Positions 17,834 to 54,717 of a stretch of DNA of 64,000 bases are shown here, piece by piece (position 1 is the stretch's first letter; every line of letters begins with the position of its first letter). The position numbers and the translations under genes are program-made. The notes under the pieces were generated by a model, which had not been told where the DNA came from, ran no database searches, and saw nothing but the letters and a program-made list of their open reading frames with translations. Location: positions 15,266,849-15,330,848 of the forward strand of contig OZ014412.1 of assembly GCA_963965975.1 (NCBI GenBank). The letters are read 5' to 3'. The stretch is from Xestospongia bergquistia (lineage: Eukaryota; Porifera; Demospongiae; Haplosclerida; Petrosiidae).

Positions 17834-20310
17834 CTAATAAAAGCTCAAGCATTCATATGTTAGACACTTAAAAAATTCATCAACAAGAGTATCATCAGTT
17901 ATGCTAAGATTTCTGAAAAAGCTTCCATACTCTAATGATCCTGAGTTGCCTAGTTCAGGAAAACCATCCCCAATCAGAAAAATGTTAGTGTCAGAAGTTT
18001 CCACTCTTGTACACCCTGTTAAACATTGATCAGCAACACACATGTGTGTATCAGCCTGAACAATTTTACCATTGAAGTTGTCACTAAGAGTTGAATAGCC
18101 ATCCGGACATTGATATCGAAATATATTCTCTCCCAAATTGATACTTCCTATTGGACTGGTAATAACATTTGAAGGTGCTTTACGAGAATCAACCAAAATA
18201 GTGTTACCAGTGATTGTGTGATTAACTGCTCCTATATATGTTCCTAAAACACGAAGATTAGGATCTGTTTGATAATGAGTCCAGTACCAGTAATTTAATA
18301 AATCTGATTCAGTGTGTTTTGTGTATTGATTGGAATTAATTGCGCGGATAGCATCAATTTTGTCAGGACCAAAATCTTTTAGACAAAGACTTCTATCAAG
18401 AGCATGAATCATACAATAATCAGATATGACATTACGTAAATTTTCATTCTTCTTATCGATGTTAGCGATATTGGGAAAGTATTGTGAAGTAAAATACTTA
18501 TACACTTCAATCATACTGTATGATAATGGAAGAGGATCGTTTTTTACTGTTTGTGCCCACTCAAAAGTAGTTCCATTTTCATCCACAGGTGGGTCTCCTC
18601 CAACTTGATACAGTTTATAGCTACGGCGTTGATCATTGAATGCTTTAGCAGCTTTTTCCTGATCTTCAGTTGCCAATGATGAACTGATATCAATTACTCC
18701 AGAGTATCCTGCAGAAGCTTTGACATTGACACCAGAAGAACAAAGATTAGAGTAGTTTGTTGTTGAAAATTCTGAACGTACTCCAAATCGACCGCCCATT
18801 TTCACTGCTGAGGCAATGTGTGTTCCATATTGTTCAATAAAAGTCAAATAATCTTGTTTTGTTGACGAGTTTATAACCTCGGAAAGAGAATTAACAGCAA
18901 TGTGAAAATCATGTGTGAATGGACTATAATCTATTGAGGCGTCATAAGCTTCACATTGTGACTGAGAACTGATGAATACTGTCTGACGACTTTGTGTAGA
19001 TTGATGAATTTCCTGATAATCAGAACTAGCAGAGAAACTTGCTCCCCAGCCTTTGAAACTTGCATCAACATGTATTTTAAGAGAGTCCATATATGAAGCT
19101 GTATCTTTGTTGATTCTGCTAGAAAATGAAAAGGAACAGGACTGAGCGTCATTGACAGTAGTATAATCTGGAATTGAGTATCGACCATCAGCAGTAGTAA
19201 GACCTTGGTTATAAGTGAATTGAAAAATCCCTCGACCTAAGAACCCAGGGTCCAAACCATCTGTGTTTTGAGGATTTCCCTTTAAAATATCATAGGATGA
19301 TCCCAAGTAACCAATGTTAGGATATTTTGGTGGTGAATCAGCTAGAGGTTCAAATATTACTAAAGAAAAAGTTGTATAATAATTAAAAATATTATATATA
19401 ATTTTGTCATGAATGATAGCAATGTAGTTATATATACATATGAGCATAAGACGTGTATAAATTCTGACAATGAATAAAGTATATAGTCTATTTTAAAATA
19501 AATGTACCGTACTCGCAACAATTTTGCTTCCGTTTAATGTGTAGTTTAATATTCTTCAAAACGTTGCAATAAAATTACAGAAATTATTTTAGCGACAAGA
19601 ATTATCACATAGCGCGGGTACTTTGAATTCGCCGTAACGCGACAGCCGATAGCATGGCCGAGTATTATGCGCTCATATTCTCAGTCCTTCGTAATAATAA
19701 CTGCAACAACAGAAACAATGTTAGGGCGATTTTCACTAATACATTCACTGTCTTAGAATTTGTTGTGCGTTCTTACCTTTTAAATATGAAGTTATTCAAT
19801 ACTTTAACTTATATTAATATCAAAATTATAAGTCTGCATGAATTGATCTAGTTAGCTTTTTTTTTAACTAGCAAAATAACATTTTTAGTAAAGTTGTCTG
19901 TCATTGGGATGATCTGTCTTACTCTAACCAAATGCTGTAACTTTAAGACACTTTGCATGCACACACACACACACTTAAAAAATATAAAAATCACATCGCT
20001 TCAAAGATTATATATATATCATTTGGAAAAGATGTCACAATAAAGATGAGTAAGCAGATATATAGAGGCAGTCATTGTAAATCTCCCTATTGCACAAGAA
20101 TTTACGTATCATATTTTAAAAAATGTTTAAAATTTTAAATAATGAGTAAAGCTTCCTTCCTTGTTAAACTGGAGTTCTATTGCCATGGTAATGTTGTAAC
20201 TTACAGCACTCTTCTGTATCACATTGAGATAGTGATGACTGATCTGGAAAGAGCTGGCAGTTAACCAGTACTGGTAGAAAACATAGTACTAGAACTAGAC
20301 TGAAATCCAT
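17834..20310 (-). CDS. Secreted MACPF (perforin-like) protein A1
   Basis: Two exons on the minus strand: 20310-20205 (signal peptide, 35 codons plus one base; donor T/gtaagt) and 19359-17834. They join in phase 1 to give 543 aa. Residues 1-18 form a signal peptide (VLVLCFLPVLVNC). The MACPF domain spans about residues 50-345, with the family signature Y-x6-YGTH at about 206-216 and the bend glycines MGGRFG at about 223-228. The C-terminal ~145 residues are Cys-rich (CPDGYSTLSD, MCVADQCLTGC, KCLTYECL). MACPF proteins oligomerise into membrane pores; target and partner are unknown. A longer frame reading into the intron to 19447 lacks the signal peptide and was not used. The 845-bp intron is unusually long for the locus. 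The gene is divergently paired with B1. Poly(A) site not seen. Confidence 0.88.
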
Positions 20311-20531
20311 TTTAAATTTTACTGCGTATAAATCAGCATAAGTTATGACTTTAATTTCCGCAAGGTTTACCACTACGAGACTAAAGATTAGGCCAAACGA
20401 TTGTGAATATTTATACACTTCTTAACGGCTAAAATTATTTGGCTAAAGTACCAGAAGCTCCTCCTTTTCCTGTAAGCTGATCTTATATACAGAAGAAACG
20501 CTCGTTTACCAATTCGCAATTTGCAAGCGAC
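20311..20531. promoter_or_regulatory. Shared divergent promoter of MACPF A1/B1
   Basis: 221 bp separate the two start codons. Toward B1, TTATATA at 20483-20489 lies about 45 bp before the ATG. Toward A1, TATAAATA on the minus strand (20415-20408) lies about 95 bp before its ATG. Between them, at 20456-20475, is the motif AGCTCCTCCTTTTCCTGTAA, kept with one C/T change in pairs 3 and 4. The motif contains TTTCCTG, whose complement CAGGAAA has an ETS-type GGAA core; factor identity is inference. Confidence 0.75.
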
Positions 20532-22222
20532 ATGTTATTACTCTCGTGCGGATTATTGTCACTACTGGCTATAGGTAGTACATTCGGTGGTAAGTTGTTC
20601 TTGTTTTAAGTGCTATGAAAAATTAACCTAGAAATATATTTAAAGTAATAACTGTTCATTTTATTATACATACAGACCTACCACCTCGTTTTCCTAATAT
20701 TGGCTATGTTGGAAGTACTTACAACATCTTTAAAGGAAATCCACACAGCACCACTGGATTAGACCCTGGATTCACTCTGCGCAACCTGAACCAATTTTAT
20801 TACCTGAATAACCTCACAACAGCTGACGGTCGTTATTCTATACCAGATAACACACAAGCTACCAGTTCTACCTCATGTACCTTTGATTTTTCTTCAGAAA
20901 CAACTGACAGTATCTCCTCATATTATAATTCTTTAAAGGTGGATGTCAGTGCTGACTTCAGTGGCTGGGGTGCTAGTTTCAGCGCTAGTTCTGATTACAA
21001 AGAAGTTCATGAAAACTCTGTTTCTCACTTGTATAGATATGTATCGTCACATGCCAGTTGTGAAGCATATGTTGCTTCTGTTCAAATAAACACTATGCCT
21101 TTAAATCCTGCATTTAAAAAAGCAGTGCATGATCTGCCTTCAGAATCTACTGCCTTAGAAGACTATAAAGACTTTATACAACATTGGGGAACACATACTG
21201 TCACCACTTTGACTATGGGGGGTCGTTATGGAGTTCAGTCATCAATATCAAATGACGACTACACTTCTATGGCATCAAGTGGATTAGATATCAAAGCAGC
21301 AGCTGGGTACTCTGGAATTGTCAGTTTAAACTCTGATGCAGCAACTAGCAGTCAGAAAGAACAAGCTGAACAATTTGAAAGCTATCGTACAGACTATCAG
21401 ATTTATCAGATTGGTGGTAAACCCCCACTTAATGAAACAACTTCATCCTTTGAGTGGGCACAGACTGTCAAAGATAATCCTCTACCTCTACTATATACTT
21501 TATTTCCGCTAACAGACTATTTAACATCACAATATTTTCCTAATGACAAAAATATATCAAAGAAGCAGTCTAACCTGCATGAAGCAACTACAGAATATTG
21601 TAAATCACTGGATCTACCTGATATCACCTACTGTATAAATGATGGTCCAATGTCTGACCCAAAAATCGAAGTCACCTTTGCAAAAAAATTTGAAAACGTA
21701 TCATGTGACATATATTTTCCTACTAATCATTTTGTCCCAATTCTAGATAACCCATATCACAGAATTCTAGGAACTTTGAAAAGCAAAATGCTAGCAAATC
21801 CTGCTCCAGTAGTAATTGTCAATGGCAATAATCCTCCTGATAAGCTGATACGAAATGCAAATGACTGGGAGCTTGTCTTTTTTATTAAGTCTTCATCGGG
21901 TGTTCTAACTGTTGGTGGATTTAGACCAATATGCGATGATGGTTTTTTAAGTGTTTCTGACGTTTTATGCTGTGGTGACATGACTGAATGTAATCTTCCA
22001 CCCACCCTGCCCTGCATTGCTGTTCAATGCTTGACAGATTGTGGGTATATTAAATTGTATGGATTCATTGTTTTGGGAGTTCCTTTTTCTGTTATAAATT
22101 TTGGAAATGCAGTCCTGGGAAATGACTACCTTAGCAACGGTACTAACTTCATGAGGATTGCTGGGAAGAATACTGCTCATGAATATAAATGTTTAAATTT
22201 TAATTGTTTACAATTTATATAA
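20532..22222 (+). CDS. Secreted MACPF (perforin-like) protein B1
   Basis: Exon 1 at 20532-20589 encodes a 19-residue hydrophobic leader (MLLLSCGLLSLLAIGS...). Exon 2 is 20676-22222. The 86-bp GT-AG intron splits a codon after its first base. The product is 534 aa. MACPF domain: YSIPDNT near residue 75, DFSGWGASFSASSDY, then signature Y-x6-WGTH (Trp in place of the usual Tyr/Phe; WGTH about 190-193) and MGGRYG. After the domain comes a Cys-rich tail with RPICDDGFLSVSD, CCGD and VQCLTDCGY, ending KCLNFNCL. The same architecture as A1, but clearly a separate paralogue class. Poly(A) signal AATAAA at 22275. Divergent from A1, which suggests co-expression. The start is fixed by the signal peptide and is matched in all B copies. 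Confidence 0.9.
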
Positions 22223-22274
22223 TTGACTTGTACTGGTTAATGAATACATTTTTTTGGAAAATGTTTTTCTTGAA

Positions 22275-22280
22275 AATAAA
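22275..22280 (+). terminator. Poly(A) signal of MACPF B1
   Basis: AATAAA 53 bases after the B1 stop codon. The equivalent is at 33934-33939 in copy 2, and a matching AATAAA lies at 54780-54785 after B4. Confidence 0.7.
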
Positions 22281-22749
22281 AAAGAATTTGGATTGTACAA
22301 GATGTCATATCATAATGGTTGAAAAATTGTAAAATTCGAACTGAATAGAATCTTAGGCAGGCAAATACAATTAATATTAATTTCAATGTTAAATGTCTAC
22401 TGTTATATATTGAACATAGTTCCCTAATAACGGATAACTTTCTACTGTTCTTGTGAGTTATTGAAAATATTAATTATATTTATATTTATTTAATTAGTTT
22501 CCGTCAACATTTTTGTTAAAATTAAAGGATTATCTTTAAAAAAGCTGCAAAAAGTTACGTAGGAGAGTTTGTTGTATATAATTAACATACAATTTAATAT
22601 TGTACAAGTAACGATATTCACTAGCTGTTACGATCACTTAAATAATATCAGTGATATATATAATTATACATGGAAGTTAATTTATTGCTTTCTCTACATA
22701 GTTATAAAATTTATTTCTTTTTCTTTTTACACTGTACTTTTATCAATAA

Positions 22750-25340
22750 TAGGAGTTCATCTCTTACTTTGTTTAGTATAATATGGAAGTCCATACCCTA
22801 CTTATGTTCACAGACTATATAACAGTAAAGGGAGTTGTTCTGTACCTCTGTGTAGTATAATATGGAAGTCTATTACCTACTTGTGTTTACAATGTAGTTA
22901 ACAGTAATGGGAGTTTGTCTGTTGCTTTGTTTAGTGTAATATGGAAGTCCATTACCTACTCTTGATACAAAGTAGTTAACAGTAATGAGAGTTCATCTGT
23001 TGCTTTGTTTAGTATAATATGGAAGTCCTTTACCTACTTGTGTTTACAATGTAGTTAACAGTAATGGGAGTTTGTCTGTTGCTTTGTTTAGTGTAATATG
23101 GAAGTCCATTACCTACTCTTGATACAAAGTAGTTAACAGTAATGAGAGTTCATCTGTTGCTTTGTTTAGTATAATATGGAAGTCCTTTACCTACTTGTGT
23201 TTACAATGTAGTTAACAGTAATGGGAGTTTGTCTGTTGCTTTGTTTAGTGTAATATGGAAGTCCATTACCTACTCTTGATACAAAGTAGTTAACAGTAAT
23301 GAGAGTTCATCTGTTGCTTTGTTTAGTATAATATGGAAGTCCTTTACCTACTTGTGTTTACAATGTAGTTAACAGTAATGGGAGTTTGTCTGTTGCTTTG
23401 TTTAGTGTAATATGGAAGTCCATTACCTACTCTTGATACAAAGTAGTTAACAGTAATGAGAGTTCATCTGTTGCTTTGTTTAGTATAATATTGAAGTCCT
23501 TTACCTACTCTTGTTTACAATGTAGTTAACAGTAATGGGAGTTTATCTGTTGCTTTGTTTAGTGTAATATGGAAGTCCATTACCTACTCTTGATACAAAG
23601 TAGTTAACAGTAATGAGAGTTCATCTGTTGCTTTGTTTAGTATAATAAGGAAGTTAATTACCTAATCTTGTTCAGACACTATATAGTTAGCAATAATGGG
23701 AGTTAATCTGTTGCTTTGTTTAGTATAATAAGGAAGTCATATTGTTCAAGAGTAGTTATCAACAATGGGATATGGTATGCAAGTTTCTTTGTTTTCGTTA
23801 TCTATTGCCTTCTCATGTTCTCAGTGTGGTTTACTGTTACAGAATTTAATCTATCACTGCATTTATTTATCATGGAAGTTGAAAGATTGTCATTTACATA
23901 TAGTAATTATCACAGAAATAGGAGTGAATATAATTATTTGATTAAAGAAGTCAATGTATAATTTTTCAAGTTTTAAAACAAATTGGACATTGTACATGGA
24001 TTCATAACACACATAGACCATGTTATCTATATAAAAAGCAACATAACTTACACCATAAGCAACAATTATTTTAGCAACAACATGTGTGCTGTTGTAGCAA
24101 CTAATGCCATGGTAATGATAACCATTTCAATTGCAATAACAATAATGCTTTCATAGTAACAGTTACTACAGTATAGCAATGTTTCACCATAGTAACAAAC
24201 ACTGTAGTAACAATAACCATAGTAATATTTATAATAGTAATAAATTTTATACCATTTCATGTCATCTTAGAGTATTTAGACCTTTCAAATGAATCTTTTA
24301 CAGCCTCTTTGATTAGACTATAGTTATCAGCAAATAAGAGAGATTCTGTCAATAGGAAATCTATTGCTCACTCATGTTTGCATCGTAGTTAACAGTAATG
24401 GGAGTGAATCTGTTGATAGGAAAACTATTTCCCTCTCTTGTTTGTGCTGTAGTTCTCAGTAATGGGAGTGAATTATACAATACGCTACATATATGTAGTG
24501 TATTGTATAACTTATTATATAATAAGTAATGTTATATCTAATGTACATCTAAGGAAATCTATTGTTATTCCACTTACTCCATAGTTATCAGTAATGGAAG
24601 TGAATTATACAATACACTACATAATAAGTAATGTTAAAACTAATGTACATCTAAGGAAATGTATTGTTATTCCACTTACTACATAGTTATCAGTAATGGG
24701 TGTTGATCAGTTGTTTTGTGTAGTATAGCATGGACATCATGCTATACTGCATACATACTCTTGTTCAAAGTTGATATTAGTAATGGGAGTAGATATGTTG
24801 TTTTGTGTAGATGTTACAGAAGTCCACTGCCTACTCTTGTTCATAGTTGTTATCAGTAATGGTAGTATATTTGTTGTTTTGTGTTGTATTGTATGGAAGT
24901 CCATTGTTTACTCTTGTTTGAATTCACAGAGCTTTTATCAATAATGGGAGTAGATCAGTTGCTTTGTTTAGTTATATAATATATTGCCTTCTCCTGTTCG
25001 AGTTTAGTTAATATTGTTAGGAATTAATCTGTTCCTTTCTATAATATATAAGGAAATCTTTTGTATTTTTCCACTTACTCTGTAGATATCAGTAATGGGA
25101 GTTGGTCTGTTGCATTGTTTAGTTATGTAATATATTACCTTCTTCTGTTCACAGTGTAGTTAGCATTGTTAAAGGTTAATGTACTGCTTTCTCTAGTAAG
25201 GAAATCTATTAATTTTTTCACCTATGTAGTTAATAGTAATGGTAGTTGATCTATTGCTTTATTGAGTATGGAAATCCATTAATTTTAGTATGGAAATCTA
25301 TTAATAGTTATATTCATGGGAGTTGATCTTGGTTAACTTA
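22750..25340. repeat. Minisatellite with 157-bp higher-order unit (copy 1)
   Basis: A core of about 78-79-bp monomers alternates between two types (cttgtgtttacaatgtagtt versus cttgatacaaagtagttaac). This gives a 157-bp higher-order period: gggagtttgtctgttgcttt recurs at 22909, 23066, 23223 and 23380. From about 23740 to 25340 the array is degenerate, with the recurring words cagtaatgggagt and ggaagtc/ggaaatct still visible. A block rich in short 'atagtaaca' words lies at 24060-24240 and a palindrome at about 24470-24507. No gene: the ORFs here are repeat artefacts. Confidence 0.9.
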
Positions 25341-25612
25341 CTTTTAAAAATGTCATTTACAAACACGTGTATGTTTAAGATTTAGTTATTCAACAGTAGC
25401 AAAAGGCTTATTAAAAAGGACTGTACAAAAAATATTAATGGTATTTATTATGGATTGTGTTTGACACGTTCTTTATTATTCAATGTTTTCTTTACTTTCA
25501 GAATTGTATGCATTGTTGGATCATGCAACAGAAACTATAAGATCACATACTTAAGCTTACGTGAATATACAAAGCACAAGTACAGCATGGTACAAGAATT
25601 AGGTGTATTGAC

Positions 25613-26386
25613 TATAATGTTGTTTGATATACCAACAATCAGATTCTTTAGGATAACTCAATTCACAAGGTTAGACATTAACAACACGAGGTCACACTTA
25701 ATCACGTGACCAAATAATAATAACAATAATAATAAACATTACAACATCTCCCTTTCTCTCAAAATAAAATAATAACTCAAATAACATAATGAAATATGTC
25801 ACAAATACCAATGTAAATAACTCACACAAATTGTTATCAATAATCGTAAATGTTCTGTCCATATCGTTGAACACGTTTCCTGTTCCTCACAGGATACCTT
25901 GATTCATTTCCGTCTCTATCTTGTTCATTTCTGTCTTGCTCATCACTTTCTTGTTTATCTCTGTCATCTTCTATATCATAATCACTATCTTCATCATCTG
26001 TTACATTTCCACTGACTTTAACTTTCTTTAACATTGATATGTTTCTCGTAAGATACTTTCCATTTCGAGTTACTGTTATCATCGATCCTTTCACTCTCAC
26101 TACTTTGAATGGAACTGGATCAAACGTTGTTGAAAATTTATTGATTTTCCTCTGTTTCATTAGTACCACATCGTCTACTTTCAACTCCAACACTTTGGCT
26201 CTTCTTCTTCTATCTGCATCTTCTTTCATTTGTACTTTCTTTTCTTTATCTCTCTTTCTAACTGGATGATCTTGTTGCTTTACCAATTCTGGAAGTTTTG
26301 TGTTTATGACTCTATTAAACAACAATTTAGATGGAGGTTCGTTTGTCGTCAAGTGAGGTGTAGCTCTATAATTTAGTAAAAATACA
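25613..26386 (-). pseudogene. Truncated Ty3/gypsy element: 3' LTR plus Gag-Pol C-terminus
   Basis: Copy-1 remnant of the gypsy element that is whole at 37268-41613. It holds the 131-bp LTR (25613-25743), the polypurine tract and the gag-pol frame 25837-26386. This encodes only about the last 180 residues: the end of integrase and an acidic Arg/Asp/Glu-rich tail. It stops abruptly at 26386 at the duplication breakpoint, beyond which the frame reads into unrelated DNA. It was cut by the duplication and cannot transpose. Confidence 0.93.
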
Positions 26387-26393: not shown

Positions 26394-26493
26394 ATGACAA
26401 CAGATGACATCCATACGCCAGGTAAAGGAAGTTCCCAGAACTAGGGAGCATTAGTTGTAAACAGATGCTAGTATTGCTGTCAAGGGATCAAGC

Positions 26494-27646
26494 ATGGCTA
26501 AGCTAACTACAATTCAGTAAGTTCTACAATAATGTATGCACACCTATTGTTTACTGACTTGTTTTTGTAGACTTTACTGTGACTTTCTAGCTCTCTGTAT
26601 TGCTATTTTTCAACCAACTGGTGTGTTTTCATTGACAGAAGCAGATTTGTATCCATTTGGAGTTGGCAATGGGGATACACGGCTTGTTGGTTCAACAGCT
26701 TTTGTCCCTTTTTCTTTCAATGTTTCAAATTTCAGAGGTTTTTCATTTGTTTCTGATGGTTATAATGTGAGCACAATACATTTAAAGTATATAATTATTT
26801 TTATATTATAAATACAGATTTTTGACAATGGCCGACTGTCTTTAGCATCTGGAACGGTCACTGCAAGTGTATTGGTTTCACCTCTAGCAAATAACGATCC
26901 CTTTACTGTTCGTGGTGATATTTTTCACAGACTTACTAATGATTCAGACCTCCTCAACAGAGCTAGAGATGACATTAGAAGGTCTTCAGTTGCTCAGATT
27001 TTTTTTAATCCTACATATCTTATCATTGCTACTTGGGTCAACCACACTAGACTAAATACTCTCGACCCTGTTGCTGTGAGTAGTTCTGTAATTATTAAAC
27101 ACTACTGTAAAAGTAATTTTCATTTAGGGTAACACGTTCCAGGTTATCTTCGTAACAGATCGATTGACAACATATGCCATTATTTTATTTGTTGAAGTGA
27201 ATGATATTCCGTCAATTTTTAACACTGCTGTAGCATTTGTTACTGAAAGTACAACAACTACTATTGCCGAACTTCCTTATGCGAATAATCTTCAACAAGC
27301 TCCAAATTTGAGTCTGGGTACCTCAATTCCTGGTACCTATATTGTCAAATTGAGTGATACCAGTAAGTACAAAGGCCATATATTATTAATCAATCAAAGC
27401 ATAACAATTTACAAATAAGAATTCTTTTACACATATTGATGCTACTAAAGTACATTCTTAAGCACCTCAGAAGTGTATTGGATAATGTATGGAATGGTAA
27501 ACAATTAATTATGCACTCTTTTTCGCATAGTTTGTCCCACTAGAGACTCACCCGTATGCCAGCTAACCCTTGCAGCAATAGCTTGTGAGAAGCTTATGTT
27601 AAGCAACTATTCTCCTCTACCAACAATCTGTGACTCTTTTCCATGA
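26494..27646 (+). CDS. Secreted NIDO-domain protein, 5 exons (copy 2)
   Basis: Duplicate of the gene at 14835-15987. Exons 26494-26516, 26571-26766, 26818-27075, 27128-27362 and 27531-27646 give the same 275-aa product. One synonymous substitution (26745) was noticed in exon 2. The upstream DNA differs completely from copy 1 beyond about 100 bp before the ATG, because the duplication junction lies there (26394). Copy 2 has the truncated gypsy gag-pol tail directly upstream, so its promoter beyond 100 bp is new. Expression may therefore differ between the copies even though the protein does not. Confidence 0.82.
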
Positions 27647-29492
27647 GTGGCTCAGTTAGATAAACATTAACATATTAACTTTTATTTTCAGAATTATTTT
27701 TTCAAGCAATTTTTAGTGAACAAGTCAGATATATGTTTTTGCCTATTATATAATAAACTGATTCATTTTTTACAAATTATAAACTTATTAACAGTTCAAT
27801 CATTCTAACTAACAGAAAACAGCTCTGCCAACACTAGAATATACAAACTGAGCTAAAGTTGACAGTGATTGATATCACTTTAATTTTTATATCATTTGAC
27901 CTTTAAATGTTACACTATGTAAGTTATTGAGTATTAATAGATTATGAAGTGGGGCTTTCAATTTCAATGTAAGAATTATTCTGTTAGCTGAATAAACTAT
28001 TTTGTAGCTTAGATCGAGGGATTTTTAAGGACACCAGAAGTCATGATTTTTCAGTATATAATGTTGGTATGTTATTAACATATTTTTATTTTAATAGGTA
28101 AGACCACAAAGGCTTAGGGGATAGTAACAAGCATCCTTGCTACATATACTAAATATAGTGACACGTAATTTATGTTACTATATTTAGGATAAGGCATGTC
28201 TACAGTATTAACAAGTTAAAGAAATAGTCCTAGAAAAAGCCAATTTATGTCACACCTCATTATGTCAGGACACATTATAAAGTGTAATGATAACAGATAA
28301 CTTTATGTGTACTAACAGTACTATGAAAAAGTATAGTGTATTGTAGTTTGGGGTAGGGAGCAGATGAAAGATTGCTATACTCTACTGCTCAAGCAAAGGA
28401 TATTATCTGTCAATGAATTAAGGTGGGTCTTTTACTAGTTACCAACTGTATATAAGACAATATATATATATATACCTATATCTATAGGGCACAGCTATAA
28501 GTCCGCATTCTCTCCTACATCTATAAAGACAATAGGTATATTGTCTGGTCTTCAGTTTCATATGAAACAAGTGTTTTTATTTCTTTTGTCACAACAACAA
28601 ACAATATCATTAACTCTGTCTTCTGATGTCTCTGTATTCTACACAATAGCTCAGTTAAACTATGTTATAAAGAATGTAATGATGACTTTAATTAAATTCT
28701 TGCAACTGAAGCAGAAAATTTCACCAATATACTTGTCATTCTTGTGAAGCCAATACACTCAGTGCATGTCAGCAATTATAGCTAAATGTAAGGCACACCC
28801 ACACACACAGAGTATAGATCAGCTATTTTGAACCCTTACTTCCAAGAAGGACTGGTTGTCATGACTATTATCTTTATATTGGGTACATAAAATATGCTAA
28901 AAGTGAGAATATTTAGTATATGTTATAAATACTAAATCCTTATACTATAGCATTGCCTTTTATGTCTGTCAATTACTATAGTACACGTATAATATATAAC
29001 ACATTTAAAATGTCAATTTTTGAATCTATTTAAAATATTTTTACAATATTTTAGTTGTCAAACAGTTGAAACAATAAAAACAATATCACATTCGCTGATA
29101 TGACAATTCCATTTAATGTTAAGTCAGTAATTAACTAGTGCCATTACTGTCAATTAAATGATTTATTAACAGGAAGTTACTCAATGTTTGGTGAATAGAC
29201 TTGTCAGAAACCACCCTGTATATTAGTGATTAAGGTAACAGTAATGCCAGTAAGAGAAAAAGACATTGGTTTATTATTTATCTCTAAATTTTCCAAAGTG
29301 TTAATGACTACTATACATATACAATAAATATTCTCATTGGTCAATTGATTGTTTGCTTGTAAAAAGGAAGTTTGAAATAATTCATTCTTTTAAACAAAAG
29401 TGTTTTTAAAGAACAAAATTATCTTTTGTGCATGGAAACCTTATTATTATATAGTTATAACCTTATGTGCAGCCAACTGTAAATAATAATAC

Positions 29493-31969
29493 CTAATAAA
29501 AGCTCAAGCATTCATATGTTAGACACTTAAAAAATTCATCAACAAGAGTATCATCAGTTATGCTAAGATTTCTGAAAAAGCTTCCATACTCTAATGATCC
29601 TGAGTTGCCTAGTTCAGGAAAACCATCCCCAATCAGAAAAATGTTAGTGTCAGAAGTTTCCACTCTTGTACACCCTGTTAAACATTGATCAGCAACACAC
29701 ATGTGTGTATCAGCCTGAACAATTTTACCATTGAAGTTGTCACTAAGAGTTGAATAGCCATCCGGACATTGATATCGAAATATATTCTCTCCCAAATTGA
29801 TACTTCCTATTGGACTGGTAATAACATTTGAAGGTGCTTTACGAGAATCAACCAAAATAGTGTTACCAGTGATTGTGTGATTAACTGCTCCTATATATGT
29901 TCCTAAAACACGAAGATTAGGATCTGTTTGATAATGAGTCCAGTACCAGTAATTTAATAAATCTGATTCAGTGTGTTTTGTGTATTGATTGGAATTAATT
30001 GCGCGGATAGCATCAATTTTGTCAGGACCAAAATCTTTTAGACAAAGACTTCTATCAAGAGCATGAATCATACAATAATCAGATATGACATTACGTAAAT
30101 TTTCATTCTTCTTATCGATGTTAGCGATATTGGGAAAGTATTGTGAAGTAAAATACTTATACACTTCAATCATACTGTATGATAATGGAAGAGGATCGTT
30201 TTTTACTGTTTGTGCCCACTCAAAAGTAGTTCCATTTTCATCCACAGGTGGGTCTCCTCCAACTTGATACAGTTTATAGCTACGGCGTTGATCATTGAAT
30301 GCTTTAGCAGCTTTTTCCTGATCTTCAGTTGCCAATGATGAACTGATATCAATTACTCCAGAGTATCCTGCAGAAGCTTTGACATTGACACCAGAAGAAC
30401 AAAGATTAGAGTAGTTTGTTGTTGAAAATTCTGAACGTACTCCAAATCGACCGCCCATTTTCACTGCTGAGGCAATGTGTGTTCCATATTGTTCAATAAA
30501 AGTCAAATAATCTTGTTTTGTTGACGAGTTTATAACCTCGGAAAGAGAATTAACAGCAATGTGAAAATCATGTGTGAATGGACTATAATCTATTGAGGCG
30601 TCATAAGCTTCACATTGTGACTGAGAACTGATGAATACTGTCTGACGACTTTGTGTAGATTGATGAATTTCCTGATAATCAGAACTAGCAGAGAAACTTG
30701 CTCCCCAGCCTTTGAAACTTGCATCAACATGTATTTTAAGAGAGTCCATATATGAAGCTGTATCTTTGTTGATTCTGCTAGAAAATGAAAAGGAACAGGA
30801 CTGAGCGTCATTGACAGTAGTATAATCTGGAATTGAGTATCGACCATCAGCAGTAGTAAGACCTTGGTTATAAGTGAATTGAAAAATCCCTCGACCTAAG
30901 AACCCAGGGTCCAAACCATCTGTGTTTTGAGGATTTCCCTTTAAAATATCATAGGATGATCCCAAGTAACCAATGTTAGGATATTTTGGTGGTGAATCAG
31001 CTAGAGGTTCAAATATTACTAAAGAAAAAGTTGTATAATAATTAAAAATATTATATATAATTTTGTCATGAATGATAGCAATGTAGTTATATATACATAT
31101 GAGCATAAGACGTGTATAAATTCTGACAATGAATAAAGTATATAGTCTATTTTAAAATAAATGTACCGTACTCGCAACAATTTTGCTTCCGTTTAATGTG
31201 TAGTTTAATATTCTTCAAAACGTTGCAATAAAATTACAGAAATTATTTTAGCGACAAGAATTATCACATAGCGCGGGTACTTTGAATTCGCCGTAACGCG
31301 ACAGCCGATAGCATGGCCGAGTATTATGCGCTCATATTCTCAGTCCTTCGTAATAATAACTGCAACAACAGAAACAATGTTAGGGCGATTTTCACTAATA
31401 CATTCACTGTCTTAGAATTTGTTGTGCGTTCTTACCTTTTAAATATGAAGTTATTCAATACTTTAACTTATATTAATATCAAAATTATAAGTCTGCATGA
31501 ATTGATCTAGTTAGCTTTTTTTTTAACTAGCAAAATAACATTTTTAGTAAAGTTGTCTGTCATTGGGATGATCTGTCTTACTCTAACCAAATGCTGTAAC
31601 TTTAAGACACTTTGCATGCACACACACACACACTTAAAAAATATAAAAATCACATCGCTTCAAAGATTATATATATATCATTTGGAAAAGATGTCACAAT
31701 AAAGATGAGTAAGCAGATATATAGAGGCAGTCATTGTAAATCTCCCTATTGCACAAGAATTTACGTATCATATTTTAAAAAATGTTTAAAATTTTAAATA
31801 ATGAGTAAAGCTTCCTTCCTTGTTAAACTGGAGTTCTATTGCCATGGTAATGTTGTAACTTACAGCACTCTTCTGTATCACATTGAGATAGTGATGACTG
31901 ATCTGGAAAGAGCTGGCAGTTAACCAGTACTGGTAGAAAACATAGTACTAGAACTAGACTGAAATCCAT
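29493..31969 (-). CDS. Secreted MACPF protein A2 (duplicate of A1)
   Basis: Exons 31969-31864 and 31018-29493, minus strand, 543 aa, with a translation identical to A1: signal peptide, MACPF domain with YGTH and MGGRFG, Cys-rich C-terminal module. It is divergently paired with B2 across 31970-32190. The identical sequence means it arose by the recent 11.66-kb tandem duplication (or an assembly duplication), not by the older unit amplification that gave A3 and A4. Confidence 0.88.
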
Positions 31970-42592: not shown

Positions 42593-42633
<41 letters not shown>

Positions 42634-43820: not shown

Positions 43821-46244
43821 CTAAAAAAAGCTCAAGCATTCATATGTTAGGCACTTAAACAGTTCATCAACAGGAGTTTTATCCTTTATTTCAAGGTCTC
43901 TAAAAAAGCTTCCTGTCTCCATTGATCCTGAGTTTCCAAGTTCAGTGAATCCATTCCCAATCAAGAAATATGTTAAACCTTTAGTTTTGATCTCAATTCT
44001 TGTACAGCTTGTTATGCAATGATCAGCTACACAAACATGTGTGCCAGCCTGATGAAGTTGTCCATAACCATGGAAGCCATCACTAAGAGTTGAGTAGCCA
44101 TTTGGACATTGATACCGAAATGTAAAAAATCCCAAAATTACTCCTGTTGGACCAGTAATGAGTTTTGAAGGTGCCTTACGAGAATCAACCAAAATAGTAT
44201 TACCAGTGATGGTGTGATTATATGCTCCTATATATGTTCCTAAATCACGAAGATTAGGATCTGTTTGATAATGACTCCAGCACCACACAGTAAGAAATGA
44301 CATAGAGATGTATTGATTAGAAGTAATTACATGTATAACTTCACTTTTATTAGGACCAAAATCTTTTTGACAAAGGCTTGTATCAAGAGCATATTTCATA
44401 CAATAGTCCAATGTGACATTACGTAAATTTTCTTTCTTCTTATTAATGTTAGTGATGTTAGGAAAATATTGTGAAGTAAAATACTTGTACAATTCAGTCA
44501 ACCTGTATGATAATGGAAGGGGATTCTTTTTTACAGTTTGTGCCCACTCAAAAGCAGTTCCATTTTCATTCACAGGTGGATCTCCCCCAACTTGATACAT
44601 TTGATAGCTATTGCGTAGATCATTGAACTTTTCTGCAGCCTTTTTCTGAGAATCAGTTGCCAATGATGAACTGATATCAACTAATCCAGAATATCCTGCA
44701 GAAGCTTTGACATTGAGGCCAGAAGAATAAAGGCTAGAGTAGTTTGTTGTAGAAAATTCCGAACGTACTCCAAATCGACCACCCATTTTCAATGCTGTTA
44801 CAATGTGAGTTCCGTATTGTTGGATAAAACTCAAATAATATTGTTTTGTTGATGAGTTTAAAACCTCTGGAAGATAAAGCACAGCCTTAAAGAAACTATC
44901 TGAAAATGTAGCATCATTTATTGAAGCACCATAAGCTTCGCATTGTGCCTGAGAACTGATGAATACTGTCTGATGACTTTTTGTCACTTCATGAACTTGC
45001 TGATAATCAGCACTAGCAGAGAAACTTGCTGCCCAACCCCTGAAACTTGTATCAACATGTATTTTAAGAGAATCCATATATGAAGCTGTATCTTTATCTA
45101 TTCTGCTAGAAAATGAAAAGGAACAGGACTGAGCATCATTGACAGTGGTATAATCTGGAATTGAGTAACGACCATCAGCAGTAGTCAGACCTTGGTTATA
45201 AGTGAATTGAAAAATTCCTTGACCTAAAAATCCATAGTCCAAACCAGCTGTGTTTTGAGGATTTCCTCTTAAAATATCATAACATGATCCCAAGTAACCA
45301 ATGTTAGGATATTTTGGCGGTGAGTCAGCTAAAGGTTCAAATATTACTAAAGGAAAAAATATGCGTAATAACTAAAGTTATTATAATTATATCATTCAGT
45401 ATAATTATAGTTAAAACAGTATATTAGATAGCTTTAGTAGAAGACACATATATTGTGACAATGCACTAGTCTATCATCAAGTACATGTTTGAGGTTTAGA
45501 TCAATATTGTTGTCTAATAATAAAAAATGTAATTTCATGAGTTTGTATATTATAGTAATGACAGACAAAAATTAGTTTATTATAATTTTTAATCAGTTAT
45601 TTTTGTTGCCATGTGCTAAGTATGTGTGGCTTGATTTCCTTATCTCTCATCTGGAACATTTATGGCCATATATTGTCTTTTTCACTAGGTAAACAGTGAA
45701 AATGATACATGAATGACCATCTTTGGTCAAGGTTATTCTTACACACGCAGTAATATTTTCTAGGCAAATGATTATCTGCTCGACAATTTTTCTTACAATT
45801 CCAAATGAGTGGCAGTTTCAATGTAAAAAGCTGACGGAAATTCAAACACATCCGCTACAATTGATAAGTCCGGAAGTAACTTTTTTAATTATAAGTTATA
45901 CGTGATATACAGAAAAAGTGGTCCCCTCTCCCTAACCAACTATGGCTTCTTACCGGAAGAATAAACCTAATAAACTAATAAAATTTATTAATTATACACA
46001 TAAATGTCTAAACGCTTGAAACTAAGTCGACTATGGTACAAAGGATTGTGCATCTTCCTTTAAAGATAAAATTTTAAATTTTAAAAATGTTACCAAATTA
46101 AGTTTTCTATGGTTTAAAATATTAATGTAGCGACTTACAGCACTCTTCTGTATCACATTGAGATAGTGATGATTGATCTGTAAAGAGCTGACAGTTAACC
46201 AGTACTGATAGAAGACAAATCATTAGAATTTGACTGAATTCCAT
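43821..46244 (-). CDS. Secreted MACPF protein A3
   Basis: Exons 46244-46139 (35 codons plus one base) and 45346-43821, in phase 1, 543 aa; intron 792 bp. Leader MEFSQILMICLLSVLVNC, then the invariant DQSSLSQCDTEEC before the splice. The MACPF domain has the signature YGTH and MGGRFG. Differences from A1 include GWAASFSA (for GWGASFSA) in the conserved strand after DTSFR and a Cys in GSCYDIL. The C-terminal Cys-rich module is intact (QCPNGYSTLSD, VADHCITSC, KCLTYECL). It is open throughout although its divergent partner B3 is frameshifted. Function as for A1: probable pore-forming secreted effector. The stop codon lies in the same conserved 3' context (tattagctt-like) as the other A genes. Confidence 0.88.
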
Positions 46245-46469
46245 TCTGAGTTTTACTAAGTCGTATGAGTCAACACCTAGTCGCTAAAATTCTTAATAAA
46301 ATTTATAATTTTGCAATAACATTTAACGCAGGCGAGACTAACGAATAGTCTTTGCAATTGAGAATATATATACACTGCAGTGCCAAATATTTATACACTG
46401 CAGTGCCAAGCTCCTCCCTTTCCTGTAAAATATACATATAGTGCTAGTTTAGCAGTTATTCGCTAAAAG
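46245..46469. promoter_or_regulatory. Shared divergent promoter of MACPF A3/B3
   Basis: 225 bp between starts. Minus-facing TATAAATA at 46395-46388, motif AGCTCCTCCCTTTCCTGTAA at 46409-46428, then the A/T-rich tatacatata at about 46431-46440 toward B3. A direct repeat, tacactgcagtgccaa, occurs at about 46371 and 46394 and is absent from the other promoters. Confidence 0.72.
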
Positions 46470-48136
46470 ATGTGTTTATTCTTGTGCGGATTGTTCTCAC
46501 TGCTGGCAATAGGTAGTGCATTCGATAGTAAGTTCTTCCAGTCAGTACAATTAAATAATTAACTTATTGCCAGAGGAATAATTATTCCATGTTGTGTTAT
46601 TACATACAGATCTCCCACCTCGTTTTCCTAATATTGGCTATGTTGGAAGTACTTATGACATCTTTAAAGGAAATCCTCACAGCACTACAGGTTTAGACCC
46701 TGGATTTACTCTTCAGAATCTCTGCAGGTTTTCTTATAAAAATAATGTCACTACTGCTGATGGTCGTTACTCAATACCAGATAACACACAAGCTACCAGT
46801 TCTTCTGCGTGTAACTTTGATTTTTCATCAAAAACAACAGACAGTGTTTCTTCATATTATAATTCTTTAAAGATGGATGTCAAGGCAGACTTCAGTGGAT
46901 GGGGTGCTAGTTTCAGCGCTAGTTCTGACTACAAAGAAGTTCATGAAAACACGGTTTCTCACAAATATAGATACGTGTCGTCACATGCCACTTGTGAAGC
47001 ATATGTTGCTTCTGTTCAAATTAATACTGTTTCTTTGAATCCTGCATTTAAAAAAGCAGTGCAGAATTTGCCTTCAAAAACAACTACTTTAATAGACTAT
47101 ATGGACTTTACACAACATTGGGGAACACATGTTGTCACCACTTTGACTATGGGGGGTCGTTATGGAGTTCAGTCATCAGTAACAAATGATGACTATACCA
47201 CTATGGCATCGACTGGATTAGATATCAAAGCAGCAGCTAAGTATTCTGGTATTGTCAGTTTAAATGCTAATGCCGCAACTAGCAGTCAAAAAGAACAAGC
47301 TGAACAATTTGAAAGCCATCGTACAGACTATCAGATTTATCTGGTAAACCCCCACTTAATGAAACAACTTCATCCTTTGAGTGGGCACAGACTGTCAAAG
47401 ATAACCCTCTACCTCTACTATATACTTTATTACCACTCACCTACTATTTAACATCACAATATTTTCCTAATGACAAAGATATACTGATAAAGCAGTCTAA
47501 CATGCTTGAAGTCACTGCAAAATATTGTCAGTCACTAGATTTACCTGATATTACCTTCTGTAAAAATGATGGTCCCACATCTACTCCAAAAATCGAAGTC
47601 ACCTTTGCAAAAAGCTTTAAATTTCTACCATGCAGTCCATCTGATTGTTCAATTTATACTCCAATATTACATAACCCTGATCACAGAATTCTTGCAACAG
47701 TAGAAAAAAAAAAAGATAAAGATTCTGCAATTGTGATAGTAAATGGCAAAAATGCTCCTAACGAACTGATACAAAATGCAAAAGGGTGGGATAAAGTATA
47801 TTCGAGTTCTGATGGTCCTGCTTCTGCCTTTAGACCAAAATGTGATGATGGTTTCTTAAGTGTATCTGACATTTTTGTTGTGGTGATAACACTGATTGTC
47901 TTAGTGATCTTCCATTAACTCTTCCCTGTATTGGTCTGCAATGTTTGACAGAGTGTGGATATTATGAATTCGATGATAATTTATCCATTAATACTTCTGT
48001 AATAGCGTTTGGAAATGGAGTCCTTGGAAATAACTTTCATTATTATGGTTATAACTTTATTAGGTTTATGCCAAATGACACACTTTCACCTGATGAACAC
48101 AAATGCTTGAATTTTAATTGTTTAACATTTATATAA
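46470..48136 (+). pseudogene. MACPF protein B3, frameshifted twice
   Basis: Exon 1 (46470-46527, leader MCLFLCGLFSLLAIGS) and the start of exon 2 (46610 onward) match the B genes, including WGTH and MGGRYG. Near 47340 seven bases present in B1 and B4 are missing, and the frame closes at 47451, removing everything after the MACPF core. Homology continues in another frame (to 47918). It then shifts again near 47872, where a T run is one base shorter than the paralogues require, and ends at 48136. Both breaks would have to be sequence errors for the gene to be intact. The first, a 7-base loss, is unlikely to be an error. A truncated secreted product ending just after the MACPF core (about residue 265 plus a foreign tail) remains possible. 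Confidence 0.85.
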
Positions 48137-50319: not shown

Positions 50320-52807
50320 CTAATAAAAGCTCAAGCATTCATATGTTAAACACTTAAAAAGTTCATCAACAGGAGTATCATCAGGTAAAGTAAAATCTCT
50401 AAAAAAGCTTCCTGTCTCCAACGATCCTGAATTGCCAAGTTCAGGGAAACCATTCCCAATCAAGTAAATTCCGTCTTCCGTGGCTTTAACTCTTGTACAA
50501 TTTGTTAAGCAATGATCAGCAATACACATATGAGTATTGGCTTGATGAAAATCTAGAATTTTAAAGCCATCAGAAAGAGTTGAGTAGCCAATTGGACATT
50601 GATACCGATAATTTAAGAAATTTGGCGGATGGATCACTCCTGTAGGTCTTGTAATGAGTTTTGAAGGTGCATTACGAGAATCAACCAAAACAGTATTTCC
50701 AGTAATACTATCACCATCTCTTCCATAATAAGTTCCTAAAACACGAAGGTTAGGATCTTGTTGATAATGACTCCAGTACGAAGTTGAAGCCCATTCAAAG
50801 AGTATGTTTACATATTGATTAGAAGTAACTACACGGATGACATCACTTTTGTTAGGACCAAAATCTTTTTGACAAAGACTTTTATCAGAAGCATGTGCCA
50901 TACAATAGTCCAATGTGACGTTACGTAGATTTTCTTTCTTCTTATCAATGTTAGTGATATTAGGGAAGTTTTGTAAAGTAAAAAACTTATACATTTCAGT
51001 CAAACTATATGATAATGGAAGAGGATCGTTTTTTAATGTTTGCGCCCACTCAAAAGTAGTTCCATTTTCATCAACAGGTGGATGTCCTCCAACTTGAAAC
51101 ATTTTATAGCTGTGACGTTTGTCATTGAATGATTGAGCAGCTTTTTTATGATCATCAGTTGCCAATGATGCACTAACATCAACTTGTCCAGAGTATCCTG
51201 CAGAAGCTTTGACATTGACACCAGAAGAACAAAGATTAGAATAATCTGTTGTTGAAAATTCTGAACGTACTCCAAATCGACCACCCATTTTCAATGCTGT
51301 CACAATGTGAGTTCCATATTTTTGAATAAAAGTTAAATAATCATGTTTTGTTGACGAGTTTATAACCTCGGAAAGGGAATTAACAGCCTTGACAAAAAAA
51401 TCTGTTAATGGAGCATCATCTACTGAGGCACCATAAACTTCACATTGTGCCTGAGAACTGATGAATACTGTCTGACGACTTTGTGTAGATTGATGAACTT
51501 GTTGATAATCAGCACTAGCAGAGAAACTTGCTGCCTTGCCCTTGAAATCTGCATCAACATGTATTTTAAGAGAATCCATATATGAAGCTGTGTCTTTGTC
51601 TATTCTGCTAGAAAATGAAAAGGAACAGGACTGAATATCATTGACAGTGGTATAATCTGGAATTGAGTATCGACCATCAGCAGTAGTCAGACCTTGGTTA
51701 TAAGTGAATTGAAAAATTCCTTGACCTAAAAATCCAGGGTCCAAACCAGCTGTGTTTTGAGGATTTCCTCTTAAAATATCATAACATGATCCCAAATAAC
51801 CAATGTTAGGATATTTTGGTGGTGAGTCAGCTAAAGGTTCAAATATTACTAAAGGAAAAAAGTTGCATAATAATTAAAAATATTATATATAATTTGTCAT
51901 GAATTAGTAATGTAGCTATAATAGTTTACCACATATGAACACAAGACGTGTATAAATTGTGATAATGCATGAACTAGTCTTTTATCAAATAAATGTATTA
52001 TACTTACAATAATGTTGCTGATGTTTAATGTGTAGTTTACTGCAGTAATATTCTTCAAAACGTTACAATAAAATTATAGAAATTTTTTTAGGTACTGCGT
52101 TTTTCAACGTGTACACTATCTAACGACAATAATTACCACATATCACAAGAAAGTGTCTTCGAGCAAACGATGGCCAACTATTATGTACTCGTGTTTGGCA
52201 AAAATTCAGTCCTTTATAGCAATAACTGCAATCACCGAAATAGTCTTAGACGATTTTCACTAATACATTCATTATGTTAAAATTTGTTGCCCCTTCTTAC
52301 CTTTTAATTATAAAGTTATTCAGATATCTGTATATTATAATTATAAATCCGCATGAATTGGCTTAATTTTTTGTAACTAGCAAAATAACTGTTTTAGTAA
52401 AGTTATCATTGAGGTGATCATGATCTTTTGACTCCTAGCAAATGTTTTTACTATTAAGACACCTTTCATACACACACACATATGTATATAGGTGCAGTTA
52501 CTTATAAATATAAAACCATTTCATATCCCTTAATTGAAGATTATCGCTAAAGTGCCATTTGGAAAAGATGACGCGCTATAAAGATGAGGGCGAAGATATA
52601 TAATAGGCATGTATTATAAATCTGCCTTATTGTACAAGTCTTTACGTATCATATTTAATAAAATACTTGTTAAACTGGAGCTCGATTGCGTAGTAACTTA
52701 CAGCACTCTTCTGTATCACATTGAGATAGTGATGACTGATCTAGAAAGAGCTCGCAGTTAACCAGTACTGATAGAAGACATAGCGCTATAACTTGACTGA
52801 AATCCAT
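50320..52807 (-). CDS. Secreted MACPF protein A4
   Basis: Exons 52807-52702 and 51848-50320, joined in phase 1, 544 aa; intron 853 bp. Leader MDFSQVIALCLLSVLVNC followed by the same DQSSLSQCDTEEC block. MACPF signature YGTH with MGGRFG; the usual GWGASFSAS is GKAASFSAS here. C-terminal Cys-rich module with QCPIGYSTLSD, CIADHCLTNC and KCLTYECL. Open throughout. The intron keeps a patch (about 52130-52280) clearly related to A1's intron (19650-19760), although any frame there is broken differently, so that patch is non-coding. Divergent partner of B4. Confidence 0.88.
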
Positions 52808-53033
52808 TCTAAATTTATTGTGTAGAAATCAGCATAAGTTATGACTTTAATTTCTGCAAAGTTTACTGCTCGGAGACTGAAGATTAGTCCAAATGATTGT
52901 GAATATTTATACACTTCCTAACGCCAGTACCGTCTAAAATTATTATGCTAAAGTCCAGAAGCTCCTCCCTTTCCTGTAAGCTGATCTTATATAATAGAAA
53001 CGCTCATTTACCATTTCGTAATTTGCAAGCAAG
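52808..53033. promoter_or_regulatory. Shared divergent promoter of MACPF A4/B4
   Basis: 226 bp. Minus-facing TATAAATA at 52911-52904, motif AGCTCCTCCCTTTCCTGTAA at 52960-52979, plus-facing TTATATA at 52987-52993, about 45 bp before the B4 ATG. Order and spacing match pair 1. Confidence 0.75.
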
Positions 53034-54717
53034 ATGTTTTTACTCTCGTGCGGATTGTTGGCACTGCTGGCTATAGGTAGTACATTCAGTGGTGGTAAGT
53101 TGTTCTTGTTTTAAGTGCTATGAAAATTTAACTTATATTGCAAGGAATAACTGTTCATTTATGTTACATACAGATCTACCACCTCGTTTTCCTAATATTG
53201 GGTATGTTGGAAGCACTTACAACATCTTTAAAGGAAATCCTCGCAGCACCTCAGGATTGGACCCTGGATTCACCCTGCGCAACATGAACCGATTTTTATA
53301 TCGAAATAACCTCACAACAACTGATGGTCGTTATTCTATACCAGATAACACACATGCTACCAGTTCTCCCTCATGTAGCTTTGATTTTTCATCAGCAGCA
53401 ACTGACAGTATCTCCTCATATTATAATACTTTAAAGGTAGACGTCAAAGCTGACTTCAGTGGCTGGGGTGCTAGTTTTAGTGCCAGTGCTGATTACAAAG
53501 AAGTTCATGAAAACTCTGTTTCTCACAAATATAGATACGTAGCGTCTCATGCCAATTGTCAAGTATATGATGCTTCTATTCCTAAAATAAATGCTGCATC
53601 TTTAAATCCTGCATTTAAAAAAGCAGTGCACAAACTGCCTTCAGAATCTACTACTTTAGAAGACTATATGGACTTTATACAACATTGGGGAACACATGTT
53701 GTCTTTAAATTGACTATGGGGGGTCGTTATGGAGTTCAGTCATCAATAACAAATAGTGACTACACCACTATGGCATCGACTGGATTAGATATCAAAGCAG
53801 CAGCTGAGTATTCTGGTATTGTCAGTTTAAATGCTAATGCCGCAACTAGCAGTCAAAAAGAACAAGCTGAACAATTTGAAAGCTATCGTACAGACTATCA
53901 GATTTATCAGATTGGGGGTAAACCCCCACTTAATGAAACACTTTCAACTTTTGAATGGGCACGGACTGTCAAAGATAATCCTCTACCTCTACGATATACT
54001 TTATTACCGCTCACAGACTATTTAACATCACAATATTTTCCTAATGACAAAGATATATCAAAGAAGCAGTCTAAGCTGCATGATGCAGCTATAGAATATT
54101 GTAAGTCACTGGATCTACCTAATATCACCTACTGCACAAATGATGGCCCAACATCTGACCCAAAAATTAAAGTCACCTTCGTAAAAAAATTTAAAAACCT
54201 TGAATGTACTCCTTATGGTCCATATCATTTTCCAATTTTAGATAACCCATATAACAGAATTCTAGGAACTACAACAGCCATGTATGATGTTACAAAGAAT
54301 TCTCCATTAGTAATTGTTAATGGCAATAATCCTCCTGATGATCTGATATTAAATGCAAAAGACTGGAAAAAAGTGCTTAACTCTAATTTATGGGGCGGTT
54401 CTATATATAGACCAATATGTGATGATGGTTTTTTAAGTGTTTCTGATTTTTTTTGCTGCGGTGACAACATTAACTGTCTTAAGGAGAATCTTCCACTCAC
54501 CCTGCCCTGTGTTGCTGTTCAATGCTTGACAGAGTGTGGATACATTAGGTTTCCTGTAAACGAGTATGACATGGATAACGTTTATATAGCTCTCATATCT
54601 TTTGGAAATCCAGTCCTAGGAAATGGCTCCCTCGACAATTATAAGTTTATAAGATTTATACAAAACAAAACACTTTCTCCTAATGAACATAAATGTTTGA
54701 ATTTCAATTGTTTATAA
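53034..54717 (+). CDS. Secreted MACPF protein B4
   Basis: Exon 1 at 53034-53094 (leader MFLLSCGLLALLAIGS, one codon longer than in B1) and exon 2 at 53174-54717, phase 1, 534 aa. MACPF signature Y-x6-WGTH and MGGRYG. Conserved DFSGWGASFSAS. Tail with RPICDDGFLSVSD, CCGDN and VQCLTECGY. The frame ends at NCL, a few residues earlier than B1 (an early TAA in an otherwise conserved end). The 79-bp intron happens to be open, so an unspliced reading from 53089 exists, but it lacks the leader. Poly(A) signal AATAAA at 54780-54785. Intact partner of A4. Confidence 0.9.

What the first reader, a model, noticed from the sequence alone, without database searches (positions are those of the whole stretch)
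17834..54717. Fourfold array of head-to-head MACPF gene pairs: candidate two-component pore-forming system
Seen: four units, each with one A-class gene (minus) and one B-class gene (plus), transcribed divergently. All eight have a leader-peptide exon joined in phase 1 to one large exon. A and B are related over the whole length but form two classes (YGTH/MGGRFG versus WGTH/MGGRYG, different leaders, different tails). Known: MACPF proteins oligomerise, and some, such as complement C8 alpha and beta, work as heteromers. Inference: strict A+B pairing kept through duplication suggests that the products act together, for example as hetero-oligomers against microbes or other cells. I know of no description of this paired arrangement, but could not search.
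Basis: partly seen in the sequence, partly recalled or inferred. Interest (0 to 1): 0.9.

Follow-up and report, generated by a model that had tools for sequence, protein, structure and literature searches.

The report
Paired perforin-like gene array in sponge
A probable sponge carries a long chromosomal row of back-to-back gene pairs, each pair encoding two different but related perforin-like (pore-forming) proteins from one short shared promoter, and the two kinds have been inherited together for a long time, which suggests a two-part attack protein that can now be tested.

Summary
The four head-to-head MACPF units are real, with corrections. All eight genes have a signal-peptide-like exon spliced in phase 1 to one large MACPF exon, but B3 is frame-broken and units 1 and 2 are an 11.65-kb, 99.8%-identical tandem copy. 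The window is the middle of a 174-kb array: 8 pairs with both large exons open, 4 with one partner broken, and fragments. The YGTH/WGTH and MGGRFG/MGGRYG signatures do not define the classes outside the window; two tail cysteines do (31 of 31 B, 0 of 33 A).

A and B are old separate classes (support 100/99, 100/100), each shared by several unnamed lineages. A and B distances match across seven pairs (r = 0.95; 4 of 5040 permutations), so pairs duplicated as units. Start codons lie 148-236 bp apart in the 10 units measured; eight promoters share one element. In unnamed assemblies, all 7 short contigs with two hits carry one A and one B. Both proteins are modelled as MACPF plus a beta-rich tail.

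Best reading: a co-expressed, secreted, probably hetero-oligomeric pore former with fast-changing tails. Co-assembly is inferred; B has decayed beside an open A gene four times. I found no description of it in the papers searched.

The parts
20205..20310 (-). A1 leader exon (signal-peptide-like, plus short extension with cysteines); donor GTAAGT, phase 1
17834..19359 (-). A1 large exon: MACPF domain plus tail
20311..20531 (.). Unit 1 region between the start codons (221 bp), shared promoter; AAGCTCCTCC element at 20455
20532..20589 (+). B1 leader exon (signal-peptide-like), phase 1
20676..22222 (+). B1 large exon: MACPF domain plus tail
14735..26386 (.). First copy of the 11.65-kb tandem duplication that carries unit 1
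   Evidence: 99.84% identical to 26394-38041
26394..38041 (.). Second copy of the duplication, carries unit 2; its end lies inside a retroelement
31864..31969 (-). A2 leader exon
29493..31018 (-). A2 large exon, protein identical to A1
31970..32190 (.). Unit 2 region between the start codons (221 bp); element at 32114
32191..32248 (+). B2 leader exon
32335..33881 (+). B2 large exon, protein identical to B1
46139..46244 (-). A3 leader exon
43821..45346 (-). A3 large exon
46245..46469 (.). Unit 3 region between the start codons (225 bp); element at 46408
46470..46527 (+). B3 leader exon
46610..48133 (+). B3 large exon, broken: matches lie in three frames
52702..52807 (-). A4 leader exon
50320..51848 (-). 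A4 large exon; AlphaFold2 model mean pLDDT 90.6
52808..53033 (.). Unit 4 region between the start codons (226 bp); element at 52959
53034..53094 (+). B4 leader exon
53174..54717 (+). B4 large exon; AlphaFold2 model mean pLDDT 91.7

Best explanation
This is a tandem array of an old two-gene cassette. Each cassette holds one A and one B perforin-like protein with a signal-peptide-like leader, read outward from a region of 148-236 bp between the start codons, which must hold both promoters. Shown by sequence: two MACPF classes older than the array, duplication of A and B together, a conserved element in eight of the shared regions, and hairpin regions kept in both classes. Inferred: A and B are made in the same cells in similar amounts and secreted. 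They then meet on a target membrane (bacterium, parasite or foreign cell) and build one ring from both subunits, either alternating or as A-B dimers. The MACPF hairpins unfold into a joint beta-barrel, while the beta-rich tails select the membrane. Duplication of whole cassettes followed by rapid change of the tails would give a repertoire of matched pairs with different targets.
Against: No complex was modelled and no expression was seen. One partner is broken in 4 of 12 units (A in U-1; B in U3, U7, U8), and a locus on C1 keeps an open A beside a decayed B, so A may work alone or pair in trans. In other assemblies 9 of the 16 contigs of 4-20 kb carry one class only (7 A, 2 B), one longer contig carries 3 A + 1 B, and A proteins outnumber B 46 to 38 overall. 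Contig sharing was inferred from equal contig lengths, and strand and distance were not seen there. Class-specific conserved positions are few (5 at the 75% level, 8 at 60%) and scattered, not gathered on the MACPF edge strands. Conserved cysteines of the large exon are even in number (10 in A, 14 in B), so a disulphide between A and B is not suggested (the A leader extension has further cysteines, not counted).
Confidence: 0.55

Rival explanations
1. Co-regulated but independent: A and B each form their own homo-oligomeric pores with different targets or membranes, and the shared promoter only delivers a cocktail.
For: Perforin-2/MPEG1, one of the closest folds, is a homopolymer (PMC7937864 abstract passage); perforin-1 is too, as far as I recall. 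The C1 locus keeps an open A beside a decayed B, and this A has close relatives elsewhere (P0086, P0099, P0100) whose contigs of 9212, 3951 and 4540 bases show no B. Neither class has lost its hairpin regions.
Against: A and B stand at 1:1 on most multi-hit contigs, and pair distances match; a cocktail would tolerate independent copy number.
Confidence: 0.25
2. By-product: one old divergent pair was duplicated as a block, because A and B are too close to separate, without any functional link between the proteins.
For: The unit 1 to unit 2 copy shows block duplication, and one-sided decay occurs in 4 of 12 units.
Against: Purifying selection on both members, a promoter element shared between units with synonymous distances near or above 1, and eight pairs with both large exons open.
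Confidence: 0.12
3. Not a killer: A and B are structural or storage proteins, or a pore former with its regulator, as with chorion A/B proteins or non-lytic MACPF proteins.
For: Some MACPF-fold proteins have other roles; astrotactin-2 is in the match lists. The gene architecture closely resembles chorion genes, including a tiny first exon.
Against: Hairpin regions and the GTH/MGG signature are kept in both classes, and the tails change faster than the MACPF half, as in recognition proteins.
Confidence: 0.08

Closest known systems
Stonustoxin alpha/beta (stonefish; MACPF/CDC heterodimer)
   Different: Carries FAT, THX and PRY-SPRY domains, none found here by Pfam. No head-to-head promoter arrangement is mentioned in the passages seen.
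Complement C6-C9 (C8 alpha/beta)
   Different: No accessory modules seen here, only MACPF in Pfam; a two-member cassette repeated many times instead of a fixed set of components.
MPEG1 / perforin-2
   Different: MPEG1 has a transmembrane helix (PMC7593815 passages). Here 60 of 63 tails have no 19-residue stretch above 1.6 mean hydropathy. This genome has other loci on C12 and C13 that look MPEG1-like by eye.
Bacterial MACPF plus beta-prism proteins (GNIP1Aa 6fbm, Mpf2Ba1 8b6u, Photorhabdus 2qp2)
   Different: Only 10-16% identity. The triple D-hydrophobic-N metal motif of the Mpf2Ba1 prism (PMC10344926 passages) is in 0 of 63 tails. Bacterial proteins.
Pleurotolysin A/B and other aegerolysin + MACPF pairs (recalled; PlyB is in the match lists)
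   Same: Two-component pore former that includes a MACPF protein.
   Different: There the partner is a small aegerolysin; here both partners are MACPF proteins.
Silkmoth chorion A/B genes
   Same: Array of divergently transcribed A/B paralogue pairs with a common promoter, a tiny first exon, class-specific intron lengths in some groups, pseudogenes and duplication (PMC4639761, abstract and passages).
   Different: Unrelated eggshell proteins. It is a model for the gene architecture, not a relative.
RPS4/RRS1 paired immune receptors of plants
   Same: Shared promoter and heteromeric immune complex (PMC5435354 passages).
   Different: Unrelated NLR receptors, not MACPF proteins.

Membership tests
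MACPF (PF01823) | Pfam model above curated cut-off | tested here: met
   106.7-129.1 bits against 21.5 for four window proteins; 53 of 53 members of alignment A2 match
MACPF (PF01823) | [YWF]GTH...GG signature and central bent sheet with two helical hairpin clusters | tested here: met
MACPF (PF01823) | Forms oligomeric membrane pores | not testable with these tools
   needs purified protein
MPEG1/perforin-2 | Type I transmembrane helix after the C-terminal domain | tested here: not met
   3 of 63 tails exceed 1.6 mean hydropathy over 19 residues (max 1.93, median 1.08)
MPEG1/perforin-2 | MABP (beta-prism) C-terminal domain | tested here: inconclusive
   matches to beta-prism MACPF proteins reach into the tail, but MPEG1 alignments end at the MACPF part, no tail family was found in Pfam, and the tail was not folded or searched alone
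Bacterial MACPF + beta-prism (GNIP1Aa/Mpf2Ba1) | beta-prism with repeated DLN metal motif | tested here: not met
Complement terminal components | Accessory TSP1/LDLa/EGF modules | tested here: not met
   apart from MACPF the best Pfam match in 53 proteins has E = 0.016, to an unrelated family
Stonustoxin-like | FAT, thioredoxin and PRY-SPRY domains | tested here: not met
   no such Pfam match
Heteromeric MACPF pair | Two MACPF paralogues in one complex | not testable with these tools
   the structure tool takes one chain of the window's own letters; needs co-purification or multimer prediction
Head-to-head gene pair | Divergent genes with start sites under 1 kb apart | tested here: met
   ATG-ATG 148-236 bp in the 10 units measured; transcription start sites themselves not known

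The most novel reading that the evidence does not exclude
An early-animal immune effector system made of obligate two-subunit perforins: a chromosomal library of matched A/B cassettes, expanded by block duplication and diversified in the targeting tails. Each cassette makes a mixed-subunit pore with its own specificity, for microbes or for non-self cells.
Probability: 0.3. Interest if true: 0.86.

Novelty: new variant of a known kind. Interest (0 to 1): 0.64.

Why it matters
The heteromeric MACPF systems named here (complement, stonustoxin) are from vertebrates. An old A/B MACPF pair that is kept and multiplied as a unit in a probable sponge would place two-part perforins, with cassette-wise diversification, near the base of animals. 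It would also make a direct test possible: how one protein fold splits into two interlocking subunits, and whether sponges distinguish microbes or other sponges with diversified pore formers. Even if A and B act separately, the locus is a clear case of a probable effector array built like the silkmoth chorion locus.

Tried and rejected
Tried and rejected. Chance or simple tandem duplication of one gene: rejected because A and B are separate old clades. An A-B disulphide link: not suggested, because conserved cysteine counts are even. One class being a hairpin-less dummy: rejected by eye. Complementary charge of A and B: not seen (mean pI 5.3 and 5.1). Class-specific residues on the edge strands: too few to argue from. 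A Pfam family for the tail: none. One of 21 dN/dS rows (B-4 against B-2) was dropped because the domain split point was not found. The 116-row tree left out B3, the fragment Bp, five database proteins under 400 residues and P0107 and P0108. The contig tally used the 84 proteins classed A or B and left out the 11 tree rows outside both classes. The tail count covers 63 of 64 aligned proteins, one lacking the signature used to cut the tail.

Papers. Searches gave no description of paired or arrayed MACPF genes in sponges among the rows shown; the listings were capped (15-25 rows of 23-827 papers). I saw listings and the passages named, not whole papers, and most subscription journals are not held.
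Full report
What is in the window. The window is G000:C2:15266849-15330848 of a 146.46-Mb genome in 21 contigs. Stop-to-stop frames of 516-552 residues lie at 17834-19492(-), 20627-22222(+), 29493-31151(-), 32286-33881(+), 43821-45371(-), 50320-51873(-) and 53077-54717(+). The B partner of unit 3 is split into overlapping frames, and its matches fall in three frames. Four of these proteins were scanned with Pfam and all four are MACPF (E 2.4e-30 to 3.4e-37).

Gene models. Every A and every B in the window has a short first exon with a hydrophobic start (A: 106 bases; B: 58-61 bases), a GTAAGT donor and phase 1. The B acceptor follows TACAG and gives introns of 79-86 bp; B1 and B2 have a second in-frame AG 30 bases upstream. 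The A acceptor is best placed at CTTTAG (introns 792-853 bp) because the residues after it are shared between A genes; a second in-frame AG 18 bases further on is not excluded. No signal-peptide program was available, so secretion rests on the hydropathy of the leaders and on some database gene models that show a leader directly before the MACPF part.

The array is larger than the window. 26 of the 47 MACPF matches listed for the genome lie in C2:15223980-15397832. I fetched 15215000-15404999 and mapped the copies. Twelve units have A on minus and B on plus. Eight have both large exons open (U-4, U-3, U-2, U1, U2, U4, U5, U9), and four have one partner broken (A in U-1; B in U3, U7, U8). U7's A leader exon also looks cut short. 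Two further broken A copies and several A and B fragments lie between them, one decayed B fragment on the opposite strand. Units 1 and 2 are an 11.65-kb tandem copy with 99.84% identity and identical predicted proteins, ending inside a retroelement. That is either a very recent duplication or an assembly duplicate.

A and B are old classes. A 58-row maximum-likelihood tree, on rows I chose, puts 26 A rows and 24 B rows each on one side of a branch (100/99 and 100/100). Both clades contain the same other lineages, and two further groups (P0043/47/54/109 and P0080/85/87/110) lie outside (wider tree). A cleaner mark is in the tail: ten cysteines are shared, and B adds four, of which two are in 31 of 31 B and 0 of 33 A.

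Pairs duplicated as pairs. For the seven own pairs with both genes open (U2 left out as identical to U1), A distances and B distances correlate at r = 0.948, reached by 4 of 5040 relabellings. The 84 proteins classed A or B (46 A, 38 B) fall on contigs as follows. All 15 contigs under 4 kb carry one hit. Of 16 contigs of 4-20 kb, 7 carry two hits, all 7 being one A and one B, and 9 carry one hit (7 A, 2 B). Longer ones carry 9+9, 3+3, 1+1, 1+1 and 3 A + 1 B, and four carry one hit. The 1608662-base contig (5+5) holds this animal's own proteins. Strand and distance could not be seen there.

Shared promoter. Start codons of A and B lie 148-236 bp apart in the 10 units where both leaders were usable; U-1 and U7 were not measured. 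AAGCTCC[TG]CC[CT] occurs eight times in 190 kb, once in each of eight unit promoters (U1-U5, U7-U9; U1 and U2 are copies), always on the same strand upstream of B. The expectation is 0.06 by composition, and 10 Markov sequences gave one hit in all; the pattern was picked after seeing the alignment, so these figures flatter it. The four left-most units lack it, and three of them show a variant. Common descent explains part of this, but synonymous distances between units 1 and 9 are near or above 1, so the element is probably under constraint.

How it probably works. A and B are made together from one short region and secreted. They bind a target membrane through their beta-rich tails and assemble into one ring whose MACPF hairpins form the pore. 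The paired genes and shared region are shown; co-transcription is likely; co-assembly is inference. For it: long maintenance of the pair, co-duplication, constraint on both members. Against it: B has decayed beside an open A in three units of the array, and at C1:3233847 an open A gene faces a B relic in the same divergent layout, matching only the first 140 or so residues of B and with stops. So A can persist alone, or pair in trans with a B from another unit.

Closest known systems. Stonustoxin is a heterodimer of two MACPF/CDC paralogues (PMC10566576 passages). Complement uses several MACPF paralogues (general knowledge). The silkmoth chorion locus has a very similar gene architecture, down to a tiny first exon, for unrelated proteins (PMC4639761 passages). 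RPS4/RRS1 are immune partners with a shared promoter (PMC5435354 passages). A perforin-like molecule raised by bacterial lipopolysaccharide is known from the sponge Suberites and is treated as Mpeg1 in the review seen (PMC7937864 passages). I found no report of paired or arrayed sponge MACPF genes among the rows shown by searches.

Which animal. A cathepsin-family exon at C9:1517831 has serine in place of the catalytic cysteine, in a CHSSYAFS context, as in silicatein (the silicatein rule is recalled); neighbouring exons keep the cysteine. This points to a demosponge. Species was not determined, and I do not claim the other assemblies are sponges. The only relatives with an organism name in the widest protein search were distant: two Tetrahymena proteins and one Montipora protein.

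Noticed in passing
37492-41445 (-) and 25837-26487 (-): Gag-pol frame of a Ty3/gypsy-like retroelement (1317 residues, named by eye), and a copy of its last part; the unit 1-2 duplication ends inside it.
   Followed up: partly
60700-62072 (-): Pieces of a second retroelement (gag with zinc knuckle, integrase-like tail), by eye from frames.
   Followed up: no
22740-23738 and 34399-35393: 157-bp tandem repeat, 6.3 copies, downstream of B1 and B2.
   Followed up: no
55821-59689: Tandem repeat with a period of about 0.83-0.85 kb downstream of B4, copies 89-96% identical.
   Followed up: no
L023 and L044 (G000:C1:3230000-3238200): A second locus on another chromosome: open A-class large exon on minus with a decayed B relic on plus in the same divergent layout.
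   Followed up: yes
G000:C12 and C13, e.g. L024 3830-5965 (-): Long open MACPF frames of 712-793 codons; the L024 frame looks MPEG1-like by eye. Further MACPF matches lie on C1, C3, C6, C8 and C11.
   Followed up: partly
Array units U1, U3, U4, U5, U7: In 9 of 10 comparisons of the central A genes the synonymous distance is lower in the MACPF half than in the tail (one tie), which hints at gene conversion confined to the MACPF half.
   Followed up: partly
G000:C9:1502757-1523415: Cluster of cathepsin L-like and silicatein-like exons, one with serine at the active-site position.
   Followed up: partly
database proteins on the contig of 867554 bases: Another lineage with 9 A and 9 B proteins on what appears to be one contig, each class split into two subclades.
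   Followed up: partly
database proteins P0043, P0047, P0054, P0109 and P0080, P0085, P0087, P0110: Two further groups outside A and B; no other protein shares their contig lengths in the lists.
   Followed up: no
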